Source of the DNA: Fusobacterium varium
GTDB taxonomy: Bacteria > Fusobacteriota > Fusobacteriia > Fusobacteriales > Fusobacteriaceae
Assembly (NCBI GenBank): GCA_002356455.1
Contig: AP017970.1
Coordinates: forward strand, 1 to 64,000
DNA length: 64,000 nt
Direction of reading: 5' to 3'
In this document: one piece after another, positions 3,657-59,616 of the stretch
Numbering within the stretch: the first letter of the stretch is position 1
Layout of the letters: each line of letters starts with the position of its first letter
Notes under the pieces: generated by a model
What the model saw: the letters and a program-made list of their open reading frames with translations, nothing else
Database searches by the model: none
Told to the model about the DNA's origin: nothing
Program-made: the position numbers and the translations under genes

Positions 3657-3661
3657 AGAGA

Positions 3662-3685: not shown

Positions 3686-3710
3686 CTATGCAGCGGCTTA
3701 GAATTTTGTT

Positions 3711-3776: not shown

Positions 3777-3850
3777 AATCAACACCCCCTTTCTTTAAGG
3801 GATCGTTTTTTAAAACCGCCGCACCAGTATATATTAGCATATTTAAGAGT

Positions 3851-3926: not shown

Positions 3927-3932
3927 AATTGA

Positions 3933-3961
3933 ATTATATACCTAATCTACTAAAAAGTCAA
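3933..3961 (-). promoter_or_regulatory. Promoter of module C small RNA
   Basis: On the minus strand TTGACT (3956-3961) is separated by exactly 17 bp from TATAAT (3933-3938), close to the sigma-70 consensus. The same boxes occur ahead of modules A and B. It lies antisense in the leader of the plus-strand gene at 3985. Confidence 0.75.
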
Positions 3962-3984
3962 GCAAATACTAAGGAGGAAGAAAG

Positions 3985-6592: not shown

Positions 6593-6922
6593 ATGGAAAA
6601 ACTGAAACAAAAATCTAAAGGAATGAGAAAGCATTTAATACTTTTAGCACTAATGACAATTAGTCTAAGTGCTATGGCAACCACTGCTGACGCACCTTGG
6701 CTTAGTGTTTTTGATAAGCTAATGAATATTTTAGTTGGTCCAACAGCAAGAATAATAGCTATCCTTGCAGTTGCTTTAGTAGGACTAAAAATGATTTTCG
6801 GTCAAATGGAAGAAGGAGGAAAACAAGGTATGAAAGCAGCAATGGGTATAGCTCTCATGTTTTTTGCTAGTACATGGGTTCCGAGTTTCTTTGGATATAG
6901 TGGTTCTGTATTAATTGGGTAA
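6593..6922 (+). CDS. trbC: VirB2/TrbC-like pilin subunit
   Basis: A 109-aa precursor of the conjugative pilus subunit. It has a basic start, a long signal sequence ending near ALA/MA-TTADA (residues ~18-35), then two hydrophobic helices (residues ~48-68 and 82-100) around a short polar loop containing GQMEEGG. This is the standard VirB2/TrbC layout. TAGGAGGAAAA precedes the ATG. It heads a long plus-strand operon of type IV secretion genes, the usual place for the pilin. Confidence 0.88.
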   Translation: MEKLKQKSKGMRKHLILLALMTISLSAMATTADAPWLSVFDKLMNILVGPTARIIAILAVALVGLKMIFGQMEEGGKQGMKAAMGIALMFFASTWVPSFFGYSGSVLIG

Positions 6923-29487: not shown

Positions 29488-29515
29488 TTGGTGCTAAAAG
29501 GCAAAAAAACCGACG
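29488..29515 (+). repeat. 28-nt repeat, copy 1
   Basis: TTGGTGCTAAAAGG followed by CAAAAAAACCGACG. It matches copy 2 (40861-40888) at 25 of 28 positions in the same orientation, 11.4 kb away. It lies 29 bp after the stop of the DNA-binding protein gene. A 17-nt word TATCTCAATAAAATCAA follows at 29556-29572; near copy 2 that word occurs in the opposite orientation (40835-40851). Confidence 0.6.
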
Positions 29516-29589
29516 TTCCTTTTGATTTAATGGCTTTTCTCCCCAAATATTGAATTATCTCAATAAAATCAAGGTTTTTCAAAGAGAGA

Positions 29590-31424: not shown

Positions 31425-31582
31425 ATGTGTTAAAATTATTTTTGAGTAAGTATTTAAAAATAATAAGGCTACCTAAATTGAAAAAGTAATCTTAATCTGT
31501 AAATGCTTGATTTTTACTAAAATTTTAAATCAATAAGGCTACTTTTTGTAACAATAATTTAGTTGATTATATGGGGGAATTT

Positions 31583-32920
31583 ATGGGAGAGATAATTAAG
31601 TATCATAATGATATGAATAAAGTTAGTTTTGCAGGGTTTAAGGAAAAAGAATTAGACTTATTTTTTTCAATATGTCAAAAGATGAAAGAAAAAGGAACAA
31701 ATGAAGTTATATTTTCTTTTGCTGAACTTCGCCAAGTTTCACAATATACTAATAGAAGTGTAGAAAGGCTTTATTCTGATTTAGATAAAGTCTATAAAAA
31801 AATGTTAGAACTTAATTTAAAATATGAAGATGATAAAGAAATAAGAAGATTTGTTTTATTTAATAGATATGTTATCAAAAAGGAAGAGAAAATCATACTG
31901 ATAAAATCAAGTGAAGATTTTGAATATGTTTTAAATAATTTAATTGGTAATTTTACAAAATTTGATTTAATTGAATTTGTAAGTTTAAAAAGCATATATT
32001 CTAAGAATATGTTTAAGTTATTAAAGCAATGGGAAAGTAAAAAAGAACGTAAATTTGAAATAGAAGAATTTAGGCATTTACTTGCAATACCAGAAAAATA
32101 TAGAATGTCAATAATAGATTTAAAAGTTTTAAAACCAATTATGGCAGAGTTACCACGATATTTTCCTAAATTAAAACTTGAAAAAATTAAAACAGGAAGA
32201 AAAGTAACAGAATTGAAGTTTACTTGGAATTTTAAAAAAGAAAATATAGATATTGAAGAAACTCAAGAAGAAATTAAAATATCTGAAAAATTGAATAAGG
32301 CAATAGAAAAAGCTAAAAAGAATAGATTCATAACAAATCTTTTTACAGATGAAAATATAGAGAAACTTCTTAATAGATTTGAAGAAAATACACTTATAAA
32401 AGGTTTAAATGCTTGTTATAAGGATATACAGAAAGATATAAAGTCTTTAAATTATCTTATAAAAGCAATAGAAACAGCAGCAGGAAAGAAAACTAAAAAA
32501 ATTGTAGTTGAGAAGGAAAAAGAAACGGATCAGGAAAAAATCAAACCAGATTCAAAAGAAAAAGTACCTACAGTACAAAAAATAAAAGTATTAGAAAGTG
32601 AACTGAAAAAAGCCTACAAACACTATCTTAAAAAAAATAAATTATCTGATAATCCTTTCACTAAGAAAGCTTTTACAATGAATTATGAGATTGTTGAAAA
32701 AATTGAATTATCAGAAAAGCTAAAAAAGTTAATAAAAGAAAATTCTATAACAGAAGAAGATATAATAGATGGGATAAGTGCAGGATATGAAAGAGAAGAT
32801 GTTATTGAAATATTAGCAGATGATAGATCTTATAAACCATCGCCAGAAGAACTTCAAAAAGAATATGAAGAGTTCCTGGCATGGAAAAAATGGAATGAAG
32901 AAAGAGAAAAACAAAAGTAA
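31583..32920 (+). CDS. repB: Rep_3-family plasmid replication initiator
   Basis: A 445-aa initiator. Residues ~1-215 contain the two winged-helix halves of Rep_3 proteins: FAELRQVSQYTNRSVERLYSD in the first half, then SLKSIYSKNMFKLLKQWESK and EEFRHLLAIPEKYR in the second. A long charged C-terminal extension (residues ~225-445) is larger than in most RepB proteins. The ATG at 31583 has GGGGGAA 5 nt upstream; the ATG at 31571 has no ribosome site. It binds the iterons directly upstream. Confidence 0.9.
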   Translation: MGEIIKYHNDMNKVSFAGFKEKELDLFFSICQKMKEKGTNEVIFSFAELRQVSQYTNRSVERLYSDLDKVYKKMLELNLKYEDDKEIRRFVLFNRYVIKKEEKIILIKSSEDFEYVLNNLIGNFTKFDLIEFVSLKSIYSKNMFKLLKQWESKKERKFEIEEFRHLLAIPEKYRMSIIDLKVLKPIMAELPRYFPKLKLEKIKTGRKVTELKFTWNFKKENIDIEETQEEIKISEKLNKAIEKAKKNRFITNLFTDENIEKLLNRFEENTLIKGLNACYKDIQKDIKSLNYLIKAIETAAGKKTKKIVVEKEKETDQEKIKPDSKEKVPTVQKIKVLESELKKAYKHYLKKNKLSDNPFTKKAFTMNYEIVEKIELSEKLKKLIKENSITEEDIIDGISAGYEREDVIEILADDRSYKPSPEELQKEYEEFLAWKKWNEEREKQK

Positions 32921-32927
32921 AATAAAT

Positions 32928-32966
32928 AAAAAGGGAAAACTACAATATTAGGTTTTCCCTTTTATA
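32928..32966. terminator. Bidirectional terminator between repB and the membrane gene
   Basis: AAAGGGAAAAC/GTTTTCCCTTT stem with A-rich left and T-rich right flanks, between convergent genes. Confidence 0.8.
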
Positions 32967-32980
32967 TTACTTTCAAATTT

Positions 32981-33244
32981 TTAATAATGATTGAAATAGG
33001 CAAATCCGAGTACTCCAAAAACGAAAATTAAATAAATTACAAGCAATATAGCAAAGATTACGAGATAAGCTATTAAAAAATTTTTTAAGTTTTTGTTTGT
33101 TTTATCAGAAACTAACCATATAATCCACATTACTATATTTACAATAGGAATTATCATTATTATGTGTATTTTTAACCAATCTTTTATTCTTAAAACTTTT
33201 TCATTTTCTTTCACTTTATAATTGTTTATATCCATATTTTCCAT
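32981..33244 (-). CDS. Small two-helix membrane protein, paralogue of 61198-61407
   Basis: An 87-aa protein with two hydrophobic helices separated by SDKTNKNLKNF. It shares the pattern IIPxxNIxMWxxWL, then TNxNLKNxLI, with the protein at 61198-61407, so the two are paralogues. AAGGAG precedes the ATG. The family is not recognised; both lie alone beside replication or decayed regions. Confidence 0.7.
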   Translation of the reverse strand: MENMDINNYKVKENEKVLRIKDWLKIHIIMIIPIVNIVMWIIWLVSDKTNKNLKNFLIAYLVIFAILLVIYLIFVFGVLGFAYFNHY

Positions 33245-33271
33245 ATCAAAACTCCTTTAGTATTTTTAAAA

Positions 33272-33547
33272 TTATTTAATTTTTTCTGAAAGAGCTTTAC
33301 CAGCTTTAAATTTAACTGCTTTTTTAGCTTCTACTTTCATTTCTTTTCCAGTTTGAGGATTTCTACAAGTTCTAGCAGCTCTTTCTACAACTTCAAATTT
33401 TCCAAATCCAAGAAAAGTAATTTCTTCTCCTTTTAGTAATCCTTCTTCAATAACATTTAAAAAGGCAGCAGCTTTTCTTTCAGCGTCTGCTTTAGTTTCA
33501 AATTCTCCTTTTGCAAAGTATAAATCAATAAATTCTTTTTTAGTCAT
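33272..33547 (-). CDS. hup: HU-family DNA-binding protein
   Basis: A 91-aa histone-like protein. ITFLGFGKFEVVERAART and the arm motif CRNPQTGKEMKVEAKK are the HU/IHF signature, and the C-terminus KFKAGKALSEKI is standard. It dimerises and bends DNA; next to repB and parA it may assist replication or partition complexes. AGGAGGTC precedes the ATG. A second, divergent HU-like protein is encoded at 47328-47639. Confidence 0.95.
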   Translation of the reverse strand: MTKKEFIDLYFAKGEFETKADAERKAAAFLNVIEEGLLKGEEITFLGFGKFEVVERAARTCRNPQTGKEMKVEAKKAVKFKAGKALSEKIK

Positions 33548-33699
33548 TATGACCTCCTGTTGTAATGTAATTAAAATTTGCTTACATAAGAATTATAAGG
33601 TGAAAATAAGAAGAAAGTCAAATAAAAAAATAGTAATATTTTATAAAAGGAAAGAAGAATAACTATATTTTAGTAAAAAAGTTCAATTTATATATAATA

Positions 33700-33727
33700 A
33701 ACTAAGTCGACCATAGTCGAGTTAGTT
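33700..33727 (+). repeat. parS: parS-like site 1
   Basis: A 28-nt imperfect palindrome, half-sites AACTAAGTCGAC and GTCGAGTTAGTT around CATA. It is the first of four copies (also 33904, 34115 and 35323) flanking the parA locus. A TATAAT (about 33693) overlaps its left edge, so ParA/ParB binding could also repress transcription. Confidence 0.85.
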
Positions 33728-33794
33728 ATGAAAAATGAAAAAAATCATTTTTCGGGTAGACAAAACAAAAAAAATAATGTATAATAATTTTAGA

Positions 33795-33870
33795 TAAAGA
33801 AAAAAGCTATTTTGCTGGTAACAAAATAGCTTCTTAAATGATATAAAATATCATATGCTTTACATGATTA
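33795..33870 (-). ncRNA. Candidate small RNA between parS sites 1 and 2
   Basis: A minus-strand promoter TTGAAA-17-TATAAT (about 33873-33901) is followed by a small hairpin ATGATA/TATCAT. A strong 11-bp terminator AAGCTATTTTG/CAAAATAGCTT (33804-33832) with six T on the minus strand comes next. The predicted RNA is ~70 nt with no ORF. It could be a copy-control, partition or antitoxin RNA; no target was found by eye. Confidence 0.55.
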
Positions 33871-33903
33871 TATCATTCTTTATCTAATATTTCAATAGTA
33901 AAA

Positions 33904-33931
33904 AACTAACTCGACTATGGTCGACTTAGTT
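33904..33931 (-). repeat. parS: parS-like site 2
   Basis: The same 28-nt element as site 1, in inverted orientation. It lies 25 bp before the ATG of the 45-aa gene. Confidence 0.85.
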
Positions 33932-33956
33932 ACATAATTTAATGGAGAGTGATATA

Positions 33957-34094
33957 ATGAAACTATCAGAACTAAACAATTTTATAATGGAAATAATCAA
34001 AAAAGTAAATTCACATGAAAAAGAGATTGTAAGCTATGAAAAAGTAACTAAAATGAAATATTCAGAATTAGAATTACTATTACATGAGAATTAA
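33957..34094 (+). CDS. Small protein between parS sites
   Basis: A 45-aa hydrophilic helical protein (KLSELNNFIMEIIKKVNSHE, ending MKYSELELLLHEN). GGAGAG lies 8 nt before the ATG. It is boxed in by parS sites 2 and 3 and is probably co-transcribed with parA. No family is recognised; a small regulator of partition is a fair guess. Confidence 0.5.
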   Translation: MKLSELNNFIMEIIKKVNSHEKEIVSYEKVTKMKYSELELLLHEN

Positions 34095-34114
34095 TTCTCT
34101 TTATCATGGTAAAC

Positions 34115-34142
34115 AACTAACTCGACTATGGTCGACTTAGTT
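34115..34142 (-). repeat. parS: parS-like site 3
   Basis: The same 28-nt element and orientation as site 2, ending 25 bp before the parA ATG. Confidence 0.85.
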
Positions 34143-34167
34143 GTTTTATGATTAAAGGAGAGCAATA

Positions 34168-35322
34168 ATGGAAATTGAAAAGAAAGTAAAAGTTAATTTA
34201 AGCTATAAAAAAGATAAAAGATTGTCATTTGCTAGAATAAATTTAATAAAAGAATATTTAGAAGTTTTAGGTTTAAATGAAGAGAATAGAAATGTTGAAA
34301 TACTCTATGAAGAGAAAGTAATTCAATTAAAAAAAGTAAATGATAAATCTAAAAGGATAACTAGGGTAAGTTATGAAAAATCTAAAAATAATTTTAAGTT
34401 CTGTATTCCTCTACCAATAGTTAGGGAATGGGAATTAGAAAAAGAAGGAAACAATAATGTTATTATAGATAAAAAAGAAGATTATATAGAAATCAGGAGG
34501 GAAAAAATGACCATAGAGAGCAATAAAAAGAAAAAGGGGAAATTCTATATAGTAAAAGTTGCAAAAGGTGGAAGTGGAAAAACTTTAGTAGCTGTAACCC
34601 TAGCTTATTTATTAGCATTAATAAAAAAATACAGAGTAGCAATTTTTTCTACAGATACCCAAAACGACCATTTATATAATTTGCTTTCTTTAGAAGAAGT
34701 TGCTGAAAGAGGAAAGAAGATAATTAAAGTAGAAGATGATGGAGATATAAGTATAACCAAAGGATTAAAAACTTTGGTAATAAAAGAAGGAAATTATGAG
34801 GATTTTATAATTAATGCTAGAGAAAATTTAGATGTAATTCCTTTAGAAAGTGATATTTTTAATTTTAAAACTAGAAAAGAAATAAATGAATTTCAAAAAT
34901 TTAAAGAAAAATTTCCAATGTTTATAGAAAAATTAAAAGAAAATTATGATATTATAATAGGTGATGGAATACCAGTTTTAAATATAGATGACTTCGCTGT
35001 AAACTGTGCTGACAAAGTTATTATTCCAGTAACAGCAGATGAAGCGACAATAAAAGGAGCTATAAGAATGGTTCAATCAATAGGGGTAGATAAAATACAT
35101 GCTATTCTTGTAAATAAATATAGAAATACATCAACTAGGAATTATTTCTTAGATGAATTGAAAGAAAAAATAGGTAAAACAGATATAATTTTTCCAGAAC
35201 CAGTAAAGGAGCTATCTCAAATAGAGCAGTTGATAAAAAATAAGAAAACATTATTTGAAAGTAAAAGTAAATATTTGAAAGAAGCTCAAATTTCTTTTAT
35301 AGATATAGCAAAAGAAATGTAA
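34168..35322 (+). CDS. parA: ParA partition ATPase with N-terminal AbrB-like domain
   Basis: A 384-aa protein. Residues ~115-384 are a ParA/MinD ATPase: KGGSGKT deviant Walker A at 133-139 (Lys133 signature, Lys138), FSTDTQND, IIGDGIPVLNIDDFAV, and IIPVTADEATIKG. Residues ~1-112 are an added region whose end (CIPLPIVREWELEKEG, then VIIDKKEDYIEIRRE) looks like an AbrB/SpoVT swapped-hairpin DNA-binding fold. The fusion could bind the parS palindromes itself. An in-frame ATG at residue 114 has its own AGGAGGG, so a ParA-only form is likely also made. GGAGAG precedes the first ATG. Confidence 0.88.
   Translation: MEIEKKVKVNLSYKKDKRLSFARINLIKEYLEVLGLNEENRNVEILYEEKVIQLKKVNDKSKRITRVSYEKSKNNFKFCIPLPIVREWELEKEGNNNVIIDKKEDYIEIRREKMTIESNKKKKGKFYIVKVAKGGSGKTLVAVTLAYLLALIKKYRVAIFSTDTQNDHLYNLLSLEEVAERGKKIIKVEDDGDISITKGLKTLVIKEGNYEDFIINARENLDVIPLESDIFNFKTRKEINEFQKFKEKFPMFIEKLKENYDIIIGDGIPVLNIDDFAVNCADKVIIPVTADEATIKGAIRMVQSIGVDKIHAILVNKYRNTSTRNYFLDELKEKIGKTDIIFPEPVKELSQIEQLIKNKKTLFESKSKYLKEAQISFIDIAKEM
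34495..34509 (+). promoter_or_regulatory. Internal ribosome-binding site and ATG inside parA
   Basis: AGGAGGG at 34495-34501 is spaced 5 nt from the in-frame ATG at 34507 (codon 114), exactly at the junction of the AbrB-like and ATPase regions. It would yield a 271-aa ATPase without the DNA-binding domain. Confidence 0.6.
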
Positions 35323-35350
35323 AACTAAGTCGACCATAGTCGAGTTAGTT
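35323..35350 (+). repeat. parS: parS-like site 4
   Basis: A copy identical in orientation to site 1, starting one base after the parA stop and ending 25 bp before the next gene. Confidence 0.85.
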
Positions 35351-35375
35351 TATTCTAAAGGAGGACAAAATAATA

Positions 35376-36125
35376 ATGAAAGAAGAAAAAAAAGTAAAAC
35401 AAACAACAGATTATTTTGGAGATTTATTAAAAGAAAGAGAAAATAAAAATAATAATAATGTAGAAATTAAAGAGATTATAAAAGAAGTTGAAGTAATAAA
35501 AGAGGTAGTAAAAGAAGTACCAGCAGAAAATAGTTTATGCAAAGTTCAAGAAATGAAAGAACTTTTAAAAATTGATAAAAATATTTTTGGTTCTCTAACA
35601 ACTGATAATGAAATAATAAATTTTTTAGAAGCAAAAACTTTTGAAATGACAAAATTAAAAACTAGTGGAACTTTATATTTTGGAAAAATTTTATCAGAAG
35701 TAGCGAAAGAATTAGGAAAAAAAGGAAGTCCAGATGGATTGTACACAAGATTTTTAGAAATAAATGGATTTAAAAAAGATTCTGCATTACAACATAGAAA
35801 AAAATATGAATTATGGGAAAATGCCAAATCAGATAGAACAAAACAAATTATAGCTTTATTATCTTTGAAAGATTGTGAAAAGCTTTATAAAGTACCAGAG
35901 TTACTAATAGATATTGAAGAAAATAAGACAATTACTTTAGAAGAGGTAAAAAATCTTTTAAGTCCATCAAAACAAATAACAGAAAAAACAGAAAATGAGA
36001 TAGAGGAATTTGACTTTAATATAATGCTAAGTTTTCAAGAAAAATTTGAAAAATTAGAAGAAAGTAAAAAACAAGAAGTAACAAAACTTTTATTGAAAAT
36101 AGAAAGAATTATGGAAGCAAATTAA
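35376..36125 (+). CDS. ParB-position partition partner, non-canonical
   Basis: A 249-aa protein following parA and preceded by AAGGAGGAC. The N-terminus includes YFGDLLKERENK and a Val/Glu/Lys-rich helix (EVIKEVVKEVP). The middle contains LYTRFLEINGFKKDSALQHR, which looks like a DNA-binding helical segment. There is no recognisable canonical ParB (CTPase, KorB-type) domain. By position and the flanking parS sites it should be the centromere-binding partner or adaptor of ParA. Confidence 0.6.
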   Translation: MKEEKKVKQTTDYFGDLLKERENKNNNNVEIKEIIKEVEVIKEVVKEVPAENSLCKVQEMKELLKIDKNIFGSLTTDNEIINFLEAKTFEMTKLKTSGTLYFGKILSEVAKELGKKGSPDGLYTRFLEINGFKKDSALQHRKKYELWENAKSDRTKQIIALLSLKDCEKLYKVPELLIDIEENKTITLEEVKNLLSPSKQITEKTENEIEEFDFNIMLSFQEKFEKLEESKKQEVTKLLLKIERIMEAN

Positions 36126-37491: not shown

Positions 37492-37500
37492 AGATTTAAG

Positions 37501-37628
37501 GAATCTTAGTATAATAAAGTATAGGAAGAAAATTAATTATATAATTTAAAAAAAATTAGCTCATAGACTATAAAAATAGACATAATATAAGTGAGATGAA
37601 AATTTATATTTATACTGAGATTCTTCCT
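37501..37628 (+). promoter_or_regulatory. Folded leader of module D peptide
   Basis: GAATCTTAGTATA (37501-37513) pairs with TATACTGAGATTC (37611-37623) with one G-U. The adjacent AGGAAGAA (37523-37530) can pair with TTCTTCCT (37621-37628). The two pairings compete for the same 3' arm, which suggests a switchable leader. Confidence 0.45.
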
Positions 37629-37690
37629 AAATAAAATTTAAAAAGAAGGTATTGAAAATAGAAAAACTAAATATGAACGGAGGTGAGAAA

Positions 37691-37780
37691 ATGAAAAAGT
37701 TAAAATTTATACTAAACCATATTTTTTTACCTATTATAACAAGTTTAATAGGAGGTTATATTTTACTTATTATGTTATAG
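37691..37780 (+). CDS. Candidate Fst-like type I toxin peptide, module D
   Basis: A 29-aa hydrophobic peptide: KKLKFILNHIFLPIITSLIG and then GYILLIML. A basic start, a Pro-Ile motif followed by Gly and one membrane helix recall Fst/Ldr-type plasmid toxins, although the usual charged tail is missing. The ribosome site CGGAGGTGAG is very strong. An in-frame ATG six codons upstream would bury that site. Its own promoter, long folded leader and downstream hairpin suggest a self-contained toxin-like unit. No antisense RNA was pinned down. Confidence 0.5.
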   Translation: MKKLKFILNHIFLPIITSLIGGYILLIML

Positions 37781-37839
37781 GAAACTGAATTTATTTAGCT
37801 ATTTCAATTAAAGGAGAAATAATGAATAAAAAAATAAAA

Positions 37840-37875
37840 AGTAGGAATGAATTTTATTATATTCCTACTTTTTTA
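37840..37875. terminator. Bidirectional terminator after module D
   Basis: AGTAGGAAT/ATTCCTACT stem (37840-37848/37861-37869) with A-rich left and T-rich right flanks, just before the left end of the IS element. Confidence 0.75.
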
Positions 37876-38005
37876 TTGTATAAAAAAACCACTTGCTAAG
37901 CGAGTGGTACAAAAAAGCCGGAAGGCTATGCTTAGAAAATAAAAGCTCCTTTGATATAATTAATTAGGTTTGCCGGCCGATTAACTAATCAAAGGAGGTC
38001 ATAAA

Positions 38006-38467
38006 ATGTATGACAATAATAGTCTATCACATATAACATGGAATTGTAAATATCATATCATATTCGCACCAAAATATAGAAGGCAGGTAATATATGGAAA
38101 AATCAAAGGAGATATAGGGCAGATATTAAGAAAACTCTGCGAATTTAAAGGAGTAGAAATAATAGAGGCTAATGCCTGTAAAGACCATATACATATGTTG
38201 GTAAGTATACCTCCGAAAATAAGCATATCAAGTTTTATGGGATATTTGAAAGGGAAAAGTTCATTGATGATATTTGATAAACATGCAAATTTAAAATATA
38301 AATATGGGAATAGACATTTTTGGTGTAGAGGATATTATGTTGATACAGTAGGAAGAAATAAAGAAAGGATCGCAAAATATATAAGAGAACAGTTGCAAGA
38401 AGATATAGCAAATGATCAATTGACATTGAAAGAGTATATAGATCCTTTCGGAGAAAAAACAAACTAA
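38006..38467 (+). CDS. tnpA: IS200/IS605-family Y1 HUH transposase TnpA
   Basis: A 153-aa transposase. KYHIIFAPKYRRQVIYG is the usual start, DHIHMLVSIPP holds the HUH motif, and the GYYVDTVGRN segment has the catalytic tyrosine. Full length for the family and apparently intact. It transposes single-stranded DNA, often at replication forks. AAAGGAGG lies ahead of the ATG. Confidence 0.95.
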   Translation: MYDNNSLSHITWNCKYHIIFAPKYRRQVIYGKIKGDIGQILRKLCEFKGVEIIEANACKDHIHMLVSIPPKISISSFMGYLKGKSSLMIFDKHANLKYKYGNRHFWCRGYYVDTVGRNKERIAKYIREQLQEDIANDQLTLKEYIDPFGEKTN

Positions 38468-38471
38468 AGCA

Positions 38472-38570
38472 CACCAGCTACTTAAGTAGCTGAATGAAGA
38501 ATTACGCGGTTGGCAAACCATTCAGTAAGGCTTAAGCCTAAGCTAGTACCATACCCTTATAGGGTGGAGC
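38472..38570 (+). other. Structured right-end segment of the IS
   Basis: About 100 bp between the tnpA stop and the terminal hairpin contain the palindrome CAGCTACTTAAGTAGCTG and GGCTTAAGCC. In relatives that carry tnpB this zone encodes the guide (omega) RNA scaffold. Here tnpB is absent, so a remnant or a relaxed right-end structure is possible. Confidence 0.35.
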
Positions 38571-38597
38571 AAACCACCACTTGAAGTGGTGGTTTGT

Positions 38598-39013
38598 GAT
38601 TATTTGTATGAAAGTTTCTTCTATTCTATAAAGATGGTTACTACCTTCAAGCGGACCTATTAAATAAAATTTATTATCTTTTTTATAGATATATCTCATA
38701 TTGTAAGGAAAATTTCGTAATTTTTTTCAAGGTCTTTTATGCTTTGAAGCCAAAATAAATCAGGATTTTTATTATATGAATGTTCACAAATGCTATATTC
38801 AATAATATCATATTGAATGATAATTACTGATAAAGCAAAAAAATGTCTCATATGGAAAATATAGTGGAATTTCCTTAGAACCAACTTTTGAAAAAGGAAA
38901 AATAACATAATATTCTTCGTTTTTCTCTACACATTTTGGCTTTTTCAATATCCATGGTTCACCATTTTTTATATACTTTTCTTTAAGATAATTTTTTCAA
39001 CAATATTATTCAT
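38598..39013 (-). pseudogene. Decayed gene truncated by the IS element
   Basis: Starting at ATG (39011-39013), protein-like text continues through at least three frames: IKNGEPWILKKPKCVEKNEE, then YDIIEYSICEHSYNKNPDLF, then KKDNKFYLIGPLEGSNHLY. The text ends at the right end of the IS. The product is unknown. No continuation was found on the other side of the IS, so a deletion probably accompanied insertion. Confidence 0.65.
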
Positions 39014-39034
39014 TTGAAATTATCTCTTAATTAT

Positions 39035-40003
39035 TTATATCTCAAATTGAGGATATATTTTAGTGATATTTTCTTCTTCAATACCAATATACTTTAATGT
39101 TTGTTCTGCTGAAGAGTGATTAAAAGCTTTCATTAGAAGTGCAATATTTAAAGTTCCTTTATATACATGATATCCCCATGTTTTTCTTAGAGAATGTGAT
39201 CCAATAGGATATTCAATACTAAGCATATCACGTAGCTTATGAAATTCTTGGCTAACTCCATTAACACTAATAGGACTATCAATTTTATGTTTGGTATTGT
39301 AACGTGAAAGGCTCTTAAATATATAACCTTCTTTTGTAGAAAAACCTATAGACTTATAATAAGCTTTTAATTCTTTAATAGCTTTTTGACAAGTCTTATT
39401 AAAAGCAATAGTTCTAATCTTCTGAGTTTTCTTTTCTTTTATAGTAACTTCCCAGTTAGGATTAATCATTTCAAATCTTAGTTGAGCTAGATCAGAAATT
39501 CTAAGTCCTACATTTACCCCAATATTAATAAAATTAAGGAAACTAATTTTATTAATCTCTCCCAGATACTTTCTAATATTTTCTAAATCTTTTTCTTTTA
39601 GTCTTTTTACTTCTTGTCCTTTTTGATTTTGATTCATTGGTAAAACTCTCCCTATAGAATAATAATATTTTTCTGAATGGGTATCATAAATAGCATTTGT
39701 GAAAAATCCCATTTGAAATATTATATCATGTAACTGGTAAAAAAAATAGCTGTATATAACAGTTGAAAAATCAAAAAAAATACAGATTACCTCAATATAG
39801 TCAATTATGTTTATACTTTTATTCTTTAGATACATAAGTTGCAAGGCATACCCTAGTTGATGAGAAGGTTTCTCCAATTTTTTTATTCTTAAAATTTCAC
39901 TTTTTGAAAGGATAAAATGGGTATTTAAATTTTTTTCGTTAACTAAAAAATTTATATTCTCTTCATTTTCCTTCTTAGAGAGAATTGTATTTCTATATTT
40001 CAT
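39035..40003 (-). CDS. Tyrosine recombinase with a Tn3-transposase-like N-terminal segment
   Basis: A 322-aa integrase. Catalytic residues are Arg168 (VGLRISDL), Lys193 region (KKTQKIRT), His270 and Arg273 (GSHSLRKTWGYH), His296 (FNHSSAEQT) and Tyr305 (LKYIGI). Residues ~30-60 (FILSKSEILRI, then SHQLGYALQLMYLK) look like the DUF4158 start of Tn3-family transposases instead of a usual arm domain. Its ATG overlaps the resolvase stop by 11 nt, so both are made together. It likely resolves multimers or moves a module. Confidence 0.85.
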   Translation of the reverse strand: MKYRNTILSKKENEENINFLVNEKNLNTHFILSKSEILRIKKLEKPSHQLGYALQLMYLKNKSINIIDYIEVICIFFDFSTVIYSYFFYQLHDIIFQMGFFTNAIYDTHSEKYYYSIGRVLPMNQNQKGQEVKRLKEKDLENIRKYLGEINKISFLNFINIGVNVGLRISDLAQLRFEMINPNWEVTIKEKKTQKIRTIAFNKTCQKAIKELKAYYKSIGFSTKEGYIFKSLSRYNTKHKIDSPISVNGVSQEFHKLRDMLSIEYPIGSHSLRKTWGYHVYKGTLNIALLMKAFNHSSAEQTLKYIGIEEENITKIYPQFEI

Positions 40004-40580
40004 TTAAGTTTCCTTTCTGTATATCTTCCCAGTCTTTAAGTAACTTATAAAATGTTGTTTTTTTAAGTTTTAGCATTTCCATAGCTCTAGTTCCTGTAAT
40101 CTCTCTAGTTTTCCAACTATGATAAACATTCTCCCAATTTTCTGGAAAAGGGATAGGTTTACGCCCTTTGTACTTTCCTAATTCTTTTGCTATCAATATT
40201 CCTTCCTTTTGACGTTCTAAAAGATTAGTTCTTTCAAATTCGTTTATAGCAGCTATCATAGTTAGCATTAGCTTTCCAGTAGGTGTAGATGTATCAATAT
40301 TTTCTTTAAAGGAGACTAAGTTTACTCTTTTTTTAGCTAAAAGATCTGTTATATGCAAAAGATCTTTAGTTGATCTAGCTAATCTAGAAAAGTCATGGAC
40401 ATAAACAGTATCTTCTTCTCTAACAAACTCTAGCATATTTTTAAGTTCAGGTCGTCCCTCAATATCTTTACCAGATACTTTTTCAATATATAGTTTTTCC
40501 ACTTTGACCTCTTTCATCTTCACCAATTGGCGACCTTCATTTTGATCTACAGTGGAAACTCTCACATATCCGACTTTCAT
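39993..40580 (-). CDS. Serine resolvase/invertase
   Basis: A 195-aa small serine recombinase. The catalytic Ser9 is in VGYVRVSTVDQ, then FVREEDTVYVHDFSRLARST, GKLMLTMIAAINEFERTNLLERQ and a C-terminal helix-turn-helix (TGTRAMEMLKLKKTTFYKLL). The ATG at 40580 has GGAGGAA upstream; a TTG four codons earlier is inside that site. It should bind a res site in the gap upstream and resolve cointegrates or dimers. Confidence 0.95.
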   Translation of the reverse strand: MKVGYVRVSTVDQNEGRQLVKMKEVKVEKLYIEKVSGKDIEGRPELKNMLEFVREEDTVYVHDFSRLARSTKDLLHITDLLAKKRVNLVSFKENIDTSTPTGKLMLTMIAAINEFERTNLLERQKEGILIAKELGKYKGRKPIPFPENWENVYHSWKTREITGTRAMEMLKLKKTTFYKLLKDWEDIQKGNLNEI

Positions 40581-40621
40581 TTCTTCCTCCAATAATTAAA
40601 ATTCTTGAATATATTATACAA

Positions 40622-40735
40622 TGATGTTCGTTTTAAGTAAATAGCAAACATATGTTTATAAAATACGTTCGAAAATTATTTTTATAACTTTATAATATTA
40701 ATTTCAATATGTTTGTTTGAACTACACCCTATTAG
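40622..40735. other. Candidate res site
   Basis: Upstream of the resolvase lie related, partly inverted TGTTYG motifs: GATGTTCGTTTTAAG, TAGCAAACATATG, TACGTTCGAAAA and ATATGTTTGTTTGAAC. Such dispersed half-sites are typical of three-subsite res regions. The gap 40581-40917 also holds 28-nt repeat copy 2 and the terminator of the next gene. Confidence 0.4.
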
Positions 40736-40807
40736 AACAAGATGTTTTCAAAGAATCTAACTTTATTTTAAAAATATTTTATAACATTAATTGATAATTA
40801 AGAGTAA

Positions 40808-40834
40808 TAAAAAAGCTACCCTAGTGAGTAGCCA
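40808..40834 (-). terminator. Terminator of the frameshifted lipoprotein gene
   Basis: On the minus strand GGCTAC-TCACTAG-GGTAGC is followed by TTTTTTA. Confidence 0.75.
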
Positions 40835-40860
40835 TTGATTTTATTGAGATAGTTGTAAAT

Positions 40861-40888
40861 TTGGTGCCAAAGGACAAAAAAACCGACG
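40861..40888 (+). repeat. 28-nt repeat, copy 2
   Basis: TTGGTGCCAAAGGA followed by CAAAAAAACCGACG, 25/28 identical to copy 1 at 29488 and in the same orientation. It lies in the loop of a 9-bp stem GAGATAGTT/AACTATCTC (about 40846-40924). Confidence 0.6.
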
Positions 40889-40917
40889 CGAGGCCTAAAT
40901 ATCTTTTCAATATTTAA

Positions 40918-41408
40918 CTATCTCTCATTTTCTTGTGTTCTTGGTCTACCTTTCGGTTTTGCCCAGGTATTTTTCTTTCCTGAAGCTTTTTTTTCTACTT
41001 TCTGATCCTTACTCTTCAAGTATTTATTCTTTGCTTTCTGGGGTAACCTAATATTGCCACCAAAATCGGAGCTACCCCTTACAGGATAATAATTAGGATA
41101 ATAACCTTGTTCAAATCCATAAATAGAAAGGTCTTTATTATAATAATCAGCAGCATAAAAAGAAGGAGGTTTCTCCAGTTCTTTATATTTTTTATGCTTA
41201 ATTAAATTTAGAAAATTAATTAAATAACTTAAATCATTTATCTCTTTTTCTTCTTTTTTATAACCATAAGATGGACTTTCTATAAAAACACCTGATATTT
41301 CTACTAATACTTGTAACATAAGATTTTTTGATGGTACCGGCTTTTTTCACAACTAGTAAACACTGAATTAAGAAATAATAAGAAAAATAAAATTATATAT
41401 TTTTTCAT
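40918..41408 (-). pseudogene. Frameshifted lipoprotein, paralogue of the gene at 43028
   Basis: The start (41406-41408, AGGAGGA upstream) encodes a lipoprotein signal: KKYIILFFLLFLNSVFTSC with Cys20, then a run of six A (41342-41347 on the plus strand as T). One more A would join it to the long frame VPSKNLMLQVLVEISGVFIE that continues to 40918. That part matches NPSQELMVQVLTEIQGIKV of the lipoprotein at 43028-43657, so the two are paralogues. The C-terminus is Lys-rich. A real frameshift, phase switching or a sequencing error are all possible. Confidence 0.75.
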
Positions 41409-41498
41409 TTAAAATCCTCCTAAATTTTAGTAAAGCTACTAATATACCTGTCTTTCTATTCCATATTAAAATCTAATATTTTTTAAATGTTTATAATA

Positions 41499-42551
41499 TT
41501 AATGCCATACTTTCGGTTTTGCATTTTTATAAACTTCTTCAAAATTAACTGTTTTTTTAGGTTTTCCAAGAATATTATAATCTCTAATACCTATAAATCT
41601 ACCATTTTCATCATAAAATTCTTCTGTTTCAATTTTGCCATTTTCATTATAATGTTTCCAAGTTCCATAGGGTTTTCCATTTTTAAATAGTGAATGTAAA
41701 CGAATTTTCCCATTTTTATAGTATTCAAACCATTCACCAGTAGGAGTTCCTTTGTCATATTGAGATATCGTAAATAATTTCCCAGAATCATAGTATGATT
41801 TTGAAATTCCCTGTCTTTTTCCTAGCTTATAATTTTCATCTAAAATTAAAATTCCTTTCTTATTATATAGCTGATAACTTCCATCTATTTCTCCCTCTTT
41901 ATATTCTATTATAAACTTAGAACCATTTCTCTTATCTATAACAACCCATTTTCCTATCCTTTTTTCAAGTAAATTATATTTTCCTTTACTTCGAGTAGCT
42001 ATTTTTGTGGAGTTAGGAGGATAATTTACATTAAATGTTTTTCTCTCATATTCAGTTGTAAAAACATAGTTTAAAATCTCTATATCATATTCTGATAAGT
42101 TTTTTTGATACTTTACCTTTCTTATAATTTCACCAGAAGAACTATACTCAATTAAGTAATCAGTAAGTGGAATTGTACCTTTAGCATCTTGATAAACTCC
42201 TAATAATTTCCCTCTAGAATAGTTTTTTACTGCCATTAAATTTCCATTAGGATGATAATAAAAATTTAATCTATCTAAAAGATCATTCTTATAATTTTCA
42301 TCTTTGTATAATTTTCCATTATCAAAGTAAACTTTACACTGACCATTAAGAATTCCTTGTACAACCTTAGCCTTCATGTAGATTTTATTAGTTTTCTTGT
42401 AATTGTCTTTATCAATATAATATATTTCAACCTCTCCATTATAAAGCTTTCCCTTATAGTAATATTTATGATTTTTTATACTTAATAAATCTTCATCTAT
42501 TGCAAATATACTAAAAGACATTAGTATATAGAAAAATAGTTTTTTTATCAT
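41499..42551 (-). CDS. Secreted YwqK/MORN-like repeat protein
   Basis: A 350-aa protein with a signal peptide (IKKLFFYILMSFSIFA) followed by about ten ~23-residue repeats with the pattern YYxNGKLxxxxxYKxGxxxG (KVYFDNGKLYKDENYKND, FYHPNGNLMAVKNYSRGKLLG, YYDSGKLFTISQYDKGTPTG). It would be periplasmic or surface-exposed. Its function is unknown; the fold is a repeated beta-hairpin. It belongs to a cluster of four such genes between 41.5 and 46.2 kb. Confidence 0.75.
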   Translation of the reverse strand: MIKKLFFYILMSFSIFAIDEDLLSIKNHKYYYKGKLYNGEVEIYYIDKDNYKKTNKIYMKAKVVQGILNGQCKVYFDNGKLYKDENYKNDLLDRLNFYYHPNGNLMAVKNYSRGKLLGVYQDAKGTIPLTDYLIEYSSSGEIIRKVKYQKNLSEYDIEILNYVFTTEYERKTFNVNYPPNSTKIATRSKGKYNLLEKRIGKWVVIDKRNGSKFIIEYKEGEIDGSYQLYNKKGILILDENYKLGKRQGISKSYYDSGKLFTISQYDKGTPTGEWFEYYKNGKIRLHSLFKNGKPYGTWKHYNENGKIETEEFYDENGRFIGIRDYNILGKPKKTVNFEEVYKNAKPKVWH

Positions 42552-49422: not shown

Positions 49423-52400
49423 CTAGAATTTATAATTGAATCTTACTCCATATTTAATTGATGAATCTTTTTTATTACTTTCATCTGCTGCCTCTACTTC
49501 AAATGTTACTCCCATGTGGTTGGCTTTTTCTACTGTAAGTCCAATTTTTCCTGTAAGTTTACCTTCACTTTCTTCTGAAGTAATCAGACTGTAGTATCCT
49601 TCTCCTCCATTTTTTAGTCTTGCTTTGTTTCCATCATAGTTATCTCCAAGCTCATATGCGTATTTTACATCTGCTGTTACTTTTACAGATACATCATTTC
49701 CTGCATAGATTCTCTGTTGTGCTTTTACTCCTACTCCTAACTGGGCGCTTAAATAATCATTATCTTTAATTTGCACTTCCAGTCCACCTTTGCTTCCTGC
49801 TTTTTCTTTAAATCCGTCTACTTTTCCATACTCTAAATCTAAATCAGTATATACATCCAATTGTCTAGAAACATCTGAATAGATAACTTTAGTAAATCTG
49901 TTATCAAATGCTACAGAGTAAGTATTGTACTCTCCTTTATTTTCAAATGTTTCCTGAAGATTAAGCTTTCTCTTAGCTATATGTCTGTTATATCCTAGTT
50001 CTATTCTTGACAGCCATGATACTTTATGTTCATCACTTAAATTTTTAACTCTGTGTACTCCTGCTCTTAATGAATATACATCCTCTTTTGAACCACCATC
50101 ATCAAAGTCAAATTTTGACCCGGCAAATCCTAATGTATATCCATATTTACTTCCATATTCTGTTCCTTCTTTTTCTTTCATATACAAAAGCCCCATTACC
50201 TTATAGTCATAGTCATCTATTCCCACAGTAGAATCCTTATAGTTTCCTTCAGTATAGATAACACTGTATTTACTGCTGTCTCTAGTTAAATTGTATGATG
50301 ATTCAAGCTCATAGAAAGAATTGTCAAATGCTCTATTGATATCCTGCATTCTTCCTTGAATAGTCGAATAGATATCTCCTCTTGTTTCTGCTAAAGTTCT
50401 AGCTGTTTCATTTGCAAACTCCTCTCCAGAAAGCCCTGCAAGATAACTATTTAATCCTTTCAATATATCTGCATCTTTTCCATTTCCTCCACTATTGGCA
50501 AGAATGTTATCCAAACCTTTATCCAATGCATCAAACTGATTTCCTATTGTTAAATCTGCATATGGTCTTTTTACTATTACTAAATCTTTTCCATTAACTA
50601 TTTTTGATACAAATAAAGGAGAAGTTACTGGTGTAAGTTTATTTCCTGTAACTGTTCCTGCTGCTACATTTACAAAGTCTTTTATCTCATATGAGATTCC
50701 ATTTCCTGTCAATGCAAAGTTTGGAAGTATATTTACTTCACCATTTACACTATGTGCATTAAACAGAGGAATTCCTGTTGTTACATCTACATAGGCCCCA
50801 TTTACCGTTATATCTCCCTGAGTAGTAAGGGTTCCTCCAATTGATACATAGTTATCATTTATTGTAATATTTCCGTTTGAATCTATTTGGACACTTCCTA
50901 TAGTTGCTGTTGCAGCTCCTGAACTTCCAGCGCCACCACTTGAACCTGTTGCACTTCCTCCTGCTCCTACAATTACATTTCCTATATTTACGAAGCTTCC
51001 AGCACCTTCTATTCCTATTCCATTATTTACATAAATAGTTCCTGTATTTTTAAAAGAACCTCCTGGACCTACTAACATTCCTACTCCATTATTTACTGTA
51101 ATAATCCCATCATTTATTATTTCAGAATTTTGATATGCTGCCATTCCTACTGTAACTGCTCCACAAGAAGCTAAAGTACTTCCTAAAGTTACATTTCCTG
51201 TATTTACAGCTACTGCTCCATTTTTTACAAGAATTCCTACTCCACCATTATCTACAGTCATGTTTCCTGTATTTGTAACCTTTGTTCCTATTCCATCTCC
51301 ATAGATTCCTACTGAATGATCATGATTTACAGTTATATTTCCAGAATTATTTACAATAGTTCCTGCAGTTGCAAAGATTCCTACTGAGTTCAGATGTTTT
51401 TCAGTATCCTTATGGTCTCCATTTACATCTGTAGCTCCTACTGTTATCTTTCCATTATTATTTATTGTGTTTAATCCATTTGAGAATATTCCTACAGATG
51501 ACATTCCTAATGTCATATCTGCATTGTTATTAACTGTTATTCCCTGACCTTTTGAATAAATTCCATATCCACTGTTTCCTACAGTCCAGCTTCCTGATGA
51601 TGTAATAGTTGATGGCGCTGTTCCTCCAACTTTATATATTCCCACAGAACCTGTTTTTGTTTTGTCAGCTATTGTCATATTGCCTGCATATGTTACATTT
51701 CCATTTCCTTCACTTACTATTCCTATACTTGTATCTGTTCCAATAGTCATATTACCTGTCACTACTGAATTTAGTCCTTTTGCATATACACCTATAGAGT
51801 TTTCATCATTCAGAGCTATTGTTCCCATTGACAAGTTGATATTTCCGCTTCCTGCTCCATAAATACCGACTCCATTAGTTCCTACATTCATAGTTGTTCC
51901 ACTTTGTGAAATTGTTCCTCCAGTCATATTTTTTCCATAGATTCCAATACTGTTATTTTCTGCTGAAACATTTCCTATTCCTGTATATGAACCTTTTTCT
52001 ACAAATATTCCTATTGATGAATTTGTTAGTGAAGTAGCTTCAGCTACTGATATATTTCCATTTACTCCTACTATACTGTTTTCTCCATATACACCAATAT
52101 TATTATTTCCTCCAGTTATGCTAACATTTCCATTTACTTTAATGTTAGAACCTTCTTTTGCCATTATTCCTACCTGATTACTAGCATTTGAATTTCCTAT
52201 AGATATTCCTGTTGGAGCTGTTTCTACTTTTGAATCCTTTAATACTATACCTATATTATAGTCTCCTGTTTGTGTAATTGTTGGAAGAACTACTGTTGCT
52301 CCTAAAACTTGAGGCTCTACCCCTTCATAATAAGCTCCTATTGAGTATTTAGATGGTGTTCCTCCCTGTACTGCTATTGTAGTTCCTCCAAGTGTTGGAG

Positions 52401-55400
52401 CTGTATTTTTTACATATATTCCTATTCCGCCATTTTTAGCTGTTATCACTGAGTTTCCATTAGCAGTTACACTTCCTCCATCTGCTACTATTCCTATTTG
52501 ATTATCAGCTGTTATATTTCCTGTGAACGTTAAAGCAGCACCTTTAGAATACATATATATTCCATCTGTTCCTACTGTTATATTTCCTGTATTTGAAACT
52601 ATAACTGATGTCCCTGCTCCTTCAGCATATACTCCTATTCCACCTTTTCCAGCTGTGATTGCTGTTCCTGTCAGAGTTATATGTGAACCTGCATTAGCTA
52701 TTATTCCTATTGCACTCTTACTTGAACTTGAGTCTCCTACTTTAATAGTTCCATTTATTGTAGAATTTGTAGCTGTTGCCATAACTCCTACACTTTCATT
52801 TCCCAAAGTAATAGTTCCTGCATTAATATTTGGTAATATTACTTCCTTAAGAACTAATCCTGTATTACCAGACTTAGTAGAATTTATATTATTTGATATA
52901 AGTCCATTTGTTACTCCTTCTATGTATACTCCTATTCCATTTGTTCCAGTAATATTTATATTATCATTTTTTACTGTTTCATTTGTCCAAGTTGTATATA
53001 TTCCAACTCCATTATTCCCTACATTTATAACTCCACTATTTTCTACCTTTGCTATATTTGTATATATTGCAGCCACTGGCTTATTTTTATCTGTAGACTC
53101 TACATTAATACTTCCAGCATTACTTACAGTTATACTTCCAGGGATTCCTCCTGCTACTCCTTCTTTCTTAACTGCTGCTAATCCTGTTCCATCTACAATG
53201 TTAATAACTCCACTTGCAGTATTAGTTATATTATAGTTTCCATTTGCACTAGTATCATATTGTCCTATAAGCCCTATTGAATCCTTCCCTATATTTAGGC
53301 TTCCTGCTGAAGATAAGCTTCCATTTGTTGTAGACATAAATGAACCAGAACCATTCATAGTAATATTAGCTCCAAGTTGAAGAGTTCCACCATTATTTAA
53401 TATTCCTATTCCTCCATTAGTTCCAAAATTTAATACAAGATTATCTCCATTTCCTCCAAGACTGGCATTTCCACCATCTCCTATATATATTCCTGCACCA
53501 CCATTTATATTTATAGTTGCACCTTGTGTTATAAGATTATTTCCCTTTTCTACATATATTCCTATTCCACCAGTAGTAGTTATAGTTCCATTATATGAAA
53601 GTGTCTTGCCTCCTGAATTTGTATGTGTACTATCTTCCAGATATACTCCTACACCATCTTTAGCATTTACACTTACACCATTTAAGGCATAATTTCCAGC
53701 AGCCTTTGTATAGATTCCTACTGAAGTTTTTCCATCATTAGCCCCTAAGCCTGAATCAGGTTTGCTCTCTCCAGTTTCTATTGCTACTCCATTAGCAAAT
53801 GCTACTGCATCATCAAAAAGATACACTCCAATTGATCCCTTGCCAGTAGTTGTTATATCTCTAGAAATTACAGAATTATTACCCTGAACAGCAACCCCTA
53901 TTGCTCCATCTCCTTTTACATTTACTGCAAAATCTATCTTAGCATTTTCTCCAAATATTCCAACTCCACCTGAACCTATTTCCAAAGTTCCAACACTTAC
54001 TTTATTGACATCTGTTCCTGCTAGATAAATTCCAAGTTTATCTGATTTAATAATTCCATCTGCACCATCAAAATTTGCATTTGTACCCTCTACATATACT
54101 CCTGTTCCTGTCGTAGCAGTTATTGTTCCACTATTTTTCCCACTGCTTGTTCCATTACCTGCTATATACATTCCAAGGTTAACTCCAGCATTTATAGTAT
54201 CAGTATTTTCTACAACAGCTGTATCTCCTGCTGCTGTCTTAGCTACCATTCCTGCTGACGACGTTCCTGTTGCTCCACTTACATCAAGAACTCCTCCATT
54301 CACTCCTTTTCCTTCAGCAACATATATTCCTATATTATCTAATCCTGACATAGTTATGTTTCCTTTTGAAGTTAAAGTTGAATTTTCTCCTATATATGAA
54401 GCTGTATTATTTGAAGTACTAGATTCTATATTTTTAGTATTAACAAGATTTATTCCATCAGCTGCATATATTCCTATACTTTTAGTTCCTGTAAGTTTAA
54501 TATCAGAACTATTTGTTATAGGCCCTAAAGCATTTCCTTTACTATAATATATTCCTATATTTTCAGTTCCTGATGTATTATTTACAGTAATTAATCCTCC
54601 AGTTGCATAAGCGCCATCAACAAGATACATTCCTGTTCCTTTTCCAGAGTTTGTATTAAGAGTAAGTCCTCCTGCACCTATAGTTACAGTTCCTTCACTT
54701 CCATATACTCCTATTGCATCAGTTTTAGCTGCTACTGTTCCTGATATAGTTGATGCTCCATCTATAAACACTCCTATAGTTTTATCTCCAGTAGCTGCTA
54801 CATTTACATCTAAAGTATTATTTCCTTTAGAATAAATTCCTACTGCTTCTTTTACAACATTCAATAGCCCTGTTGTATTACTTGTAAATGTACTTCCAGT
54901 ATTAGCATTTTCAAGATATATTCCAACTGTTTTATTTCCTGCTGTTGTTGGAGTAACTACACCATCTACTGTTATTGTTTTCCCTGCATCTAATTCAATA
55001 GCTGCATCTTTACCATATAGATAGATATTTTTATTTTCATTATTATTTGTAAAAGTTAGATTTTGTTTAATATTTACTATTCCATTTTCTGCAAAAACTC
55101 CTATATTAGATTTTCCACCAAATGCAATATTATTTCCAGTAAGTTCTGCCTTCGCACCATCTTTTACATAAATCCCAATACCTTTATCTGGCTTGATATT
55201 AATTAAATTAGTATTTTTAACAATACTTCCATTTCCTAAGCCTGTCATTCCAATCTGACTGCTCGAATTTAATGTTATTGTACCTGTATTTGTTATAGTC
55301 CCTTGAGCTACACCCATTCCTATAGCATTATTCTTTCCAGTCACTAAATTAATAATTCCTCTATTAGTACCATTTCCATTTTTTATATAAATTCCAGTCC

Positions 55401-59580: not shown

Positions 59581-59616
59581 TATTTCCTCCTGGTTCAACT
59601 AAATTACAATTATTTT

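What the first reader, a model, noticed from the sequence alone, without database searches (positions are those of the whole stretch)
39035..40003. Tyrosine recombinase with a Tn3-transposase-like N-terminus, coupled to a resolvase
Residues 30-60 resemble the DUF4158 opening of Tn3 transposases (LGYALQLMYLK), while the rest is a tyrosine recombinase with all catalytic residues. The gene overlaps a serine resolvase. A tyrosine and a serine recombinase in one operon, with a borrowed DNA-binding domain, suggests a chimeric mobile or resolution module.
Basis: inference. Interest (0 to 1): 0.58.

Follow-up and report, generated by a model that had tools for sequence, protein, structure and literature searches.

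The report
Transposon scrap fused to recombinase gene
The odd 'chimeric' gene is the broken-off start of a common Tn3-type transposon that happens to run, in frame, through a former spacer into a complete ordinary small recombinase gene, so it looks like a scar of DNA rearrangement rather than a new kind of mobile module.

Summary
In detail: the 322-aa ORF has a Tn3-transposase N-terminus (DUF4158, above Pfam's cut-off), a complete tyrosine-recombinase domain, and overlaps a serine resolvase by 11 nt. The interpretation does not. At the DNA level the ORF is three pieces. (1) 40003-39794: the 5' end of a Tn3 tnpA (177 of 212 nt identical to an intact Tn3 in a related genome); the resolvase is that element's tnpR, and its terminal repeat lies at 40898-40829. 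(2) 39784-39638: the non-coding leader of a recombinase gene, with stops in the own-genome homologue and changing as fast as third codon positions. (3) 39637-39035: a complete 200-aa recombinase with its own start and ribosome-binding site. No Tn3 catalytic domain is detected in the genome; an internally deleted copy of the same transposon lies in contig C1. The fusion is open in none of the other genomes. Most likely: a truncated Tn3 remnant joined, in frame by chance, to an ordinary small recombinase gene. In passing: a relative of this recombinase lies in an ~806-bp segment between 26-bp inverted repeats, upstream of a gene row with two FadA-type adhesin genes; the segment is inverted in one of three species.

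The parts
40829..40898 (-). Terminal inverted repeat of a Tn3-family transposon (the tnpR-side end); no partner end was found next to the truncated tnpA
   Evidence: 88.6% over 70 nt and 89.9% over 69 nt to the left and right ends of the intact Tn3 in L032; 82.5% over 63 nt to the tnpR-side end in L034; also found at C1:1670037-1670112, C1:1670664-1670726 and C1:1676528-1676592 in the own genome
40593..40828 (.). Region between the end repeat and tnpR, where a res site would be expected; no res site was demonstrated
   Evidence: Position only; res upstream of tnpR in tnpR-tnpA elements is stated in PMC7157771 (passages seen). Promoter-like match at 40641-40613 (-), but promoter-like matches in 38600-41000 are not above chance (18 against 14.2 +/- 4.3); a terminator-like stem at 40833-40814 (-), 2 such sites found against 0.6 +/- 0.9
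39993..40592 (-). Serine resolvase (tnpR of the Tn3 remnant); likely true start at the ATG 40580
   Evidence: PF00239, 136.4 bits; Shine-Dalgarno -9.3 kcal/mol before the ATG at 40580; the 3' end of a resolvase of this type, up to the position of the tnpA start, lies between two end repeats in a second remnant, L077
39794..40003 (-). 5' end of a Tn3-family tnpA (about 70 codons), truncated
   Evidence: 177 of 212 nt identical to L032 2644-2855; 56 of 73 residues identical to its TnpA; DUF4158 29.1 bits
39785..39793 (-). Junction between tnpA and the recombinase leader
   Evidence: tnpA DNA similarity ends at 39794 and similarity to own-genome C2 begins at 39784; the sequences around the breakpoint are printed
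39638..39784 (-). Former non-coding leader of the recombinase gene, now read as residues 74-122
   Evidence: Homologous to L043 9100-8954, where all three frames hold stops; 26 of 146 aligned sites differ, with 2 gap columns, against 34 of 199 third codon positions
39035..39637 (-). Complete small tyrosine recombinase, native start at M123 (200 aa)
   Evidence: PF00589; the 11 relatives aligned with it are 194-200 aa proteins that begin within about six residues of this start; Shine-Dalgarno -7.4 kcal/mol against -4.0 at the ORF's first ATG; substitutions against the C2 copy by codon position 12, 4 and 34 of 199 each
38600..39034 (-). Downstream stretch that reads like a decayed gene broken by frameshifts and stops; homology to C2 ends at the recombinase stop
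38006..38467 (+). IS200-type transposase gene beside the locus; not part of the fusion
   Evidence: PF01797 Y1_Tnp, 139.8 bits

Best explanation
The ORF is an accidental in-frame junction. A Tn3-family transposon (end repeat - tnpR - tnpA) lost everything beyond about codon 70 of tnpA, including its transposase catalytic domain and its other end. The break was joined to the leader of a small tyrosine-recombinase gene of a kind that is repeated in this genome and its relatives. The frame happens to stay open through the 147-nt leader. The functional product is most likely still the 200-aa recombinase made from its own start at 39637. A 322-aa read-through product from the tnpA start may be made as well, but nothing suggests it has a function. 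Shown: the three segments, the junction to within 9 bp, the native start context, the constraint on the recombinase part, the absence of a detectable Tn3 catalytic domain. Inferred: that the join arose by illegitimate recombination or deletion, and which start the ribosome uses.
For: DNA of 40005-39794 matches a Tn3 tnpA 5' end (177 of 212 nt) and DNA of 39784-39031 matches own-genome contig C2 (671 of 756 nt); the two similarities meet within 9 bp. The C2 copy is a 198-aa gene with a leader holding stops in all frames. The leader changes like third codon positions (26 of 146 against 34 of 199), while codon positions 1 and 2 of the recombinase are constrained (12 and 4 of 199). The native start has a Shine-Dalgarno energy matched or beaten by 3.9% of 1981 window ATGs, the ORF's first ATG by 20.7%. 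A Tn3 end repeat lies outside the resolvase. Own-genome L077 holds a second, internally deleted copy: end repeat, 3' end of this resolvase type up to the position of the tnpA start, TnpA residues 897-922, inverted end repeat. PF01526 gives no match at E <= 0.001 in the genome. In one search (196 genomes, own one included) nine matches are N-terminal only, five of them inside frames of 834-937 aa, and all five listed rows besides the window that start before residue 62 and run past residue 130 hold 3-9 stops.
Against: The 49 leader codons are open, with a chance of about 3.5% under a first-order Markov simulation, before counting the need for the right frame on both sides; selection for a fusion could explain that, though the ORF was noticed because it is open. 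The resolvase is only 27% identical to the tnpR of the intact Tn3 used for comparison, and its closest relatives (90% identity) lie in stretches without a Tn3 tnpA, so the resolvase lineage is not specific to this transposon. There is no expression or proteomic evidence either way.
Confidence: 0.93

Rival explanations
1. A true chimeric recombinase: the Tn3 N-terminal piece gives the recombinase a new DNA-binding or protein-contact function, and it works with the resolvase in a resolution or mobility module.
For: Open frame of 322 codons, operon-like 11-nt overlap with the resolvase, DUF4158 above cut-off; the tnpA start keeps a weak Shine-Dalgarno (-4.0 kcal/mol); an open leader has only ~3.5% chance.
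Against: Only 57 of 165 DUF4158 positions; the linker is former non-coding DNA; no other open example among the genomes; the native recombinase start is intact.
Confidence: 0.04
2. A Tn3 transposon that carries a tyrosine recombinase as its resolvase, like TnpI of Tn4430.
For: TnpI-type Tn3 elements exist (PMC7157771, passages seen).
Against: This element already has a TnpR; the recombinase lies beyond a truncated tnpA, not before an intact one, and close relatives of it lie outside Tn3 elements beside autotransporter, FadA and other genes.
Confidence: 0.01
3. An assembly error joined two unrelated pieces.
For: The fusion is seen in one genome only.
Against: The genome is in 3 contigs with 100% completeness; the junction-flanking DNA differs by 11-17% from its best relatives, so no near-identical copy was seen that could mislead the assembly.
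Confidence: 0.02

Closest known systems
Tn3-family transposons of tnpR-tnpA layout (TnpA of Tn4430 as solved relative, 7qd4-7qd8)
   Same: End repeat, tnpR, then tnpA overlapping it by 11 nt as in L034 and L035; N-terminal ~73 residues of TnpA; the intact relative matches Tn4430 TnpA in two stretches covering most of it (residues 10-476 and 511-919 of 923)
   Different: tnpA cut after about 70 codons; no second end found beside it and no catalytic domain detected: a remnant, not a transposon
Small (~200 aa) tyrosine recombinases of the FimB/FimE or RecV kind (comparison and sizes recalled; RecV as an invertase is named in abstracts listed)
   Same: Catalytic domain only, about 200 aa, catalytic residues present; one close relative lies in a segment inverted between species
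   Different: No significant inverted repeats found around the window copy (14-nt pair reached by 4 of 40 simulated controls), so its target is unknown
TnpI of Tn4430 / Tn5401
   Same: Tyrosine recombinase linked to Tn3 sequence
   Different: TnpI serves as the element's resolvase and is colinear with tnpA (PMC7157771, passages); here a TnpR is present and tnpA is truncated

Membership tests
Tn3-family transposon | Terminal inverted repeats at both ends | tested here: not met
   One end repeat at 40898-40829; the own-genome search found no partner beside the truncated tnpA: on this contig only two partial matches at 29488-29572, the other strong ones on C1
Tn3-family transposon | TnpA with DDE catalytic domain | tested here: not met
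   PF01526: no match at E <= 0.001 in the genome; only a 26-residue C-terminal scrap of TnpA in L077
Tn3-family transposon | tnpR overlapping the start of tnpA | tested here: met
   11-nt overlap, against 11-20 nt by ORF listing in 5 of 5 relatives
Tn3-family transposon | res site bound by TnpR | not tested
   Region 40593-40828 noted by position only
Tyrosine recombinase | PF00589 catalytic domain with R, K, H-x-x-R, H and Y | tested here: met
   74.9 bits; R168, K192, H270, R273, H296, Y305 invariant in 12 of 12 sequences (catalytic roles recalled)
Tyrosine recombinase | Strand exchange activity | not testable with these tools
   No biochemical data
Functional chimeric recombinase | Fusion conserved in more than one lineage | tested here: not met
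   Open across the junction only in the window among 196 genomes; no plasmid record with 80% coverage (0 of 1434 with a match, 0 of 8; records of the window's own genome may be left out there)
Functional chimeric recombinase | Complete borrowed domain | tested here: not met
   57 of 165 positions of DUF4158
DNA invertase acting at local inverted repeats | Inverted repeats flanking a switchable segment | tested here: inconclusive
   14-nt exact pair 39690-39703 / 38783-38796, reached by 4 of 40 simulated controls

The most novel reading that the evidence does not exclude
The tnpA start signals drive translation of a 322-aa recombinase whose Tn3-derived N-terminus changes its DNA or partner binding: a gene fusion caught soon after birth, made from a transposase fragment, a translated spacer and an intact recombinase.
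Probability: 0.05. Interest if true: 0.5.

Novelty: new member of a known kind. Interest (0 to 1): 0.15.

Why it matters
It shows how a truncated transposon can produce a domain combination that a profile search reports above its curated cut-off and that looks like a new chimeric module. Comparing the DNA, not the protein, separates scar from invention. The recombinase half belongs to a family of which at least one member lies in a segment that is inverted between species, upstream of adhesin genes, and that is the part worth follow-up.

Tried and rejected
Rejected: TnpI-like resolvase (a TnpR is already present, tnpA is truncated). A conserved chimeric family: no second open example; the genome-contig scan used six short peptide patterns and found only 3 distant recombinases (25-31% identity), so it is a weak negative, and the viral-contig scan confirmed none of 5 candidates. 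An invertible cassette at the window copy: 14-nt repeat, reached by 4 of 40 simulated controls; a first, smaller test had scored it 14 against a maximum of 13 in 12 shuffles. In one search, 13 gene copies were tested on two sides; besides L044, L078 and L079 one further pair, upstream of L040, was reached by 0 of 40, and I did not follow it. Rfam gave no match at gathering score in 37500-41500. Promoter-like matches were not above chance. PHROGs labels the recombinase 'integrase' and the resolvase 'DNA invertase', which I did not take as function.

Literature: listings only for (15 of 19 listed; 12 of 43 listed; 10 of 23 listed); passages of PMC7157771 seen, no paper read whole. No title or start of abstract listed or 57 announced an invertible adhesin element in Fusobacterium; those papers were not read.

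Full report
What was claimed. A tyrosine recombinase with a Tn3-transposase-like N-terminus, overlapping a serine resolvase, read as a chimeric mobile or resolution module.

What is there. The ORF 39035-40003 (-) codes for 322 aa and overlaps the resolvase ORF 39993-40592 by 11 nt. Pfam finds DUF4158 at residues 7-62 (29.1 bits, cut-off 27.4; profile positions 1-57 of 165) and Phage_integrase at 133-307 (74.9 bits). A whole-genome search with DUF4158 finds this one place only at E <= 0.001.

The N-terminus is a truncated tnpA. Residues 1-73 share 56 of 73 residues with the N-terminus of a 923-aa Tn3 transposase in related genome G027 (L032), and 39-60% over 66-74 residues with four more in G079, G042 (two) and G057. 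The L032 transposase matches the solved Tn4430 transposase in two stretches that cover most of it. At the DNA level 40005-39794 is identical to L032 2644-2855 at 177 of 212 nt, and the similarity ends there. L032 carries a complete element: end repeat 1695-1764, resolvase 2003-2656, transposase 2637-5408, inverted end repeat 5491-5424. The same end repeat stands in the window at 40898-40829, outside the resolvase. Resolvase-transposase overlaps by ORF listing in five Tn3 loci are 11-20 nt, two of them exactly 11 nt as here; in one of the five, L041, the transposase frame is broken into two ORFs.

The resolvase belongs to the remnant. It is only 27% identical to L032's resolvase. Relatives with about 90% identity lie in G052 and in G046, whose contig appears to be the Cetobacterium somerae plasmid NZ_CP092523.1 also found; the stretches examined around these and other close relatives show no Tn3 transposase by tblastn at E <= 1e-4. 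The link to the transposon comes from a second copy in the own genome, at C1:1670037-1670726 (L077): end repeat, an internal deletion, the 3' end of a resolvase of this type up to the position of the tnpA start, then TnpA residues 897-922, then the inverted end repeat. So this resolvase type and tnpA lie between one pair of ends there. In G043 (L073) a resolvase with 82% identity also has two end-repeat copies upstream. No Tn3 catalytic domain (PF01526) is detected in the genome at E <= 0.001.

The rest is a recombinase gene with its leader. 39784-39031 is identical at 671 of 756 nt to own-genome contig C2 (L043 9100-8352), where the gene is a 198-aa ORF beginning MNQKGQEV. The tnpA and C2 similarities meet within 9 bp, which places the junction at 39793-39785. 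Residues 74-122 are thus the old leader: in C2 all three frames of the leader hold stops. Between the copies the leader differs at 26 of 146 sites with 2 gap columns, like third codon positions (34 of 199), while first and second positions differ at 12 and 4 of 199. The eleven relatives aligned are 194-200 aa and start within about six residues of M123; L039's listed ORF is longer (234 aa) and I aligned it from an internal ATG. The alignment is a chosen set, not every match: L046, nearly identical to L045, and many more distant matches were left out.

Which start. The 20 bases before ATG 39637 pair with the anti-Shine-Dalgarno at -7.4 kcal/mol (matched or beaten by 3.9% of 1981 ATGs in the window), like C2 (-7.5) and two other copies (-7.1, -7.4); the ORF's first ATG gives -4.0 (20.7%) and the L032 transposase ATG at 2646 gives -3.4 (29.8%). 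A read-through product is possible, but the native start is the stronger.

Is the fusion conserved? In 196 genomes (own one included) 45 had some match. Nine matches cover only residues 1-73, five of them within frames of 834-937 aa. All five listed rows besides the window that begin before residue 62 and run past residue 130 (own C2, G011, G049, G052, G058) contain 3-9 stops. In plasmids 1434 records matched the protein and none covered 80% of it; 8 matched the DNA of the region and none covered 80%; records of the own genome may be left out there. The genome contigs and viral-contig scans gave no fusion but were weak tests.

Against this reading. The open 49-codon leader has about a 3.5% chance under a simple simulation, and less when the frame match is counted. 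The ORF was picked because it is open, so this carries limited weight, but it keeps a small probability for a selected fusion. There are no expression data.

What the recombinase probably does. It is a catalytic-domain-only recombinase of about 200 aa. One own-genome relative (L044 6169-6765) lies between 26-nt inverted repeats matching at 25 of 26 (6082-6107 and 6862-6887); 0 of 40 simulated controls reached its score, and likewise for its relatives in the same place in G007 and G002 (L078, L079). Aligned with G002 (L079) the region is collinear. Aligned with G007 (L078) the flanks are collinear but the part between the repeats is inverted, with breakpoints at the repeats. The genes downstream in L044 include two FadA-family adhesin proteins (PF09403, 106.0 and 95.9 bits), the first beginning about 1.4 kb beyond the segment, after other ORFs; that they form one operon is inference. 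A promoter-like match (TTGATT-17-TATCAT, L044 6821-6849) points out of the segment toward them, but such matches are not above chance there (11 against 9.8 +/- 3.7). So this relative is probably a DNA invertase that switches an adhesin gene row from inside its own segment; that is inference from three genomes. For the window copy no such repeats are significant (14 nt, 4 of 40).

Verdict. A real ORF with a correctly seen domain, but a rearrangement scar: truncated Tn3 (end repeat, tnpR, 70 codons of tnpA) joined in frame by chance to an ordinary small recombinase gene.

Noticed in passing
L044 6082-6887 (own genome C1:1631081-1631886); L079 3177-3981; L078 3975-4779: A relative of this recombinase lies inside an ~806-bp segment flanked by 26-27-nt inverted repeats, about 1.4 kb upstream of FadA-family adhesin genes; the segment is in one orientation in two species and inverted in the third, with breakpoints at the repeats. 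A likely phase switch of adhesin genes.
   Followed up: partly
L077 2038-2727 (own genome C1:1670037-1670726): A ~690-bp internally deleted derivative of the same Tn3 transposon with both end repeats; a further end-repeat copy stands at C1:1676528-1676592.
   Followed up: partly
window 29488-29572: Two partial, oppositely oriented matches to the Tn3 end repeat, 28 and 30 nt, separated by 27 nt; a possible remnant of two transposon ends.
   Followed up: no
L043 4680-11202 (own genome C2): Two small recombinase genes (198 and 194 aa) near a 1207-aa autotransporter (PF03797) that converges on the first.
   Followed up: partly
L045 and L046 (own genome C1, near 3156378 and 3237085): Two loci about 80 kb apart share 6.4 kb at 99.95% identity, including the recombinase and the start of a long ORF that reaches past 1177 aa (to the end of the stretch) in one copy and ends at 395 aa in the other.
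   Followed up: no
L040 (G027), about 80 to 210 bases upstream of the recombinase gene: An inverted-repeat pair upstream of the gene that 0 of 40 simulated controls reached; one of 26 tests made, so it may be chance.
   Followed up: no
window 49423-59598 (-): A 3391-aa ORF with no Pfam match above its cut-off (best hit 24.2 bits against a cut-off of 27).
   Followed up: no
window 31571-36125: Rep3-type initiator gene and a ParA-like AAA_31 gene, so contig C3 (68,063 bases) is probably a plasmid.
   Followed up: partly
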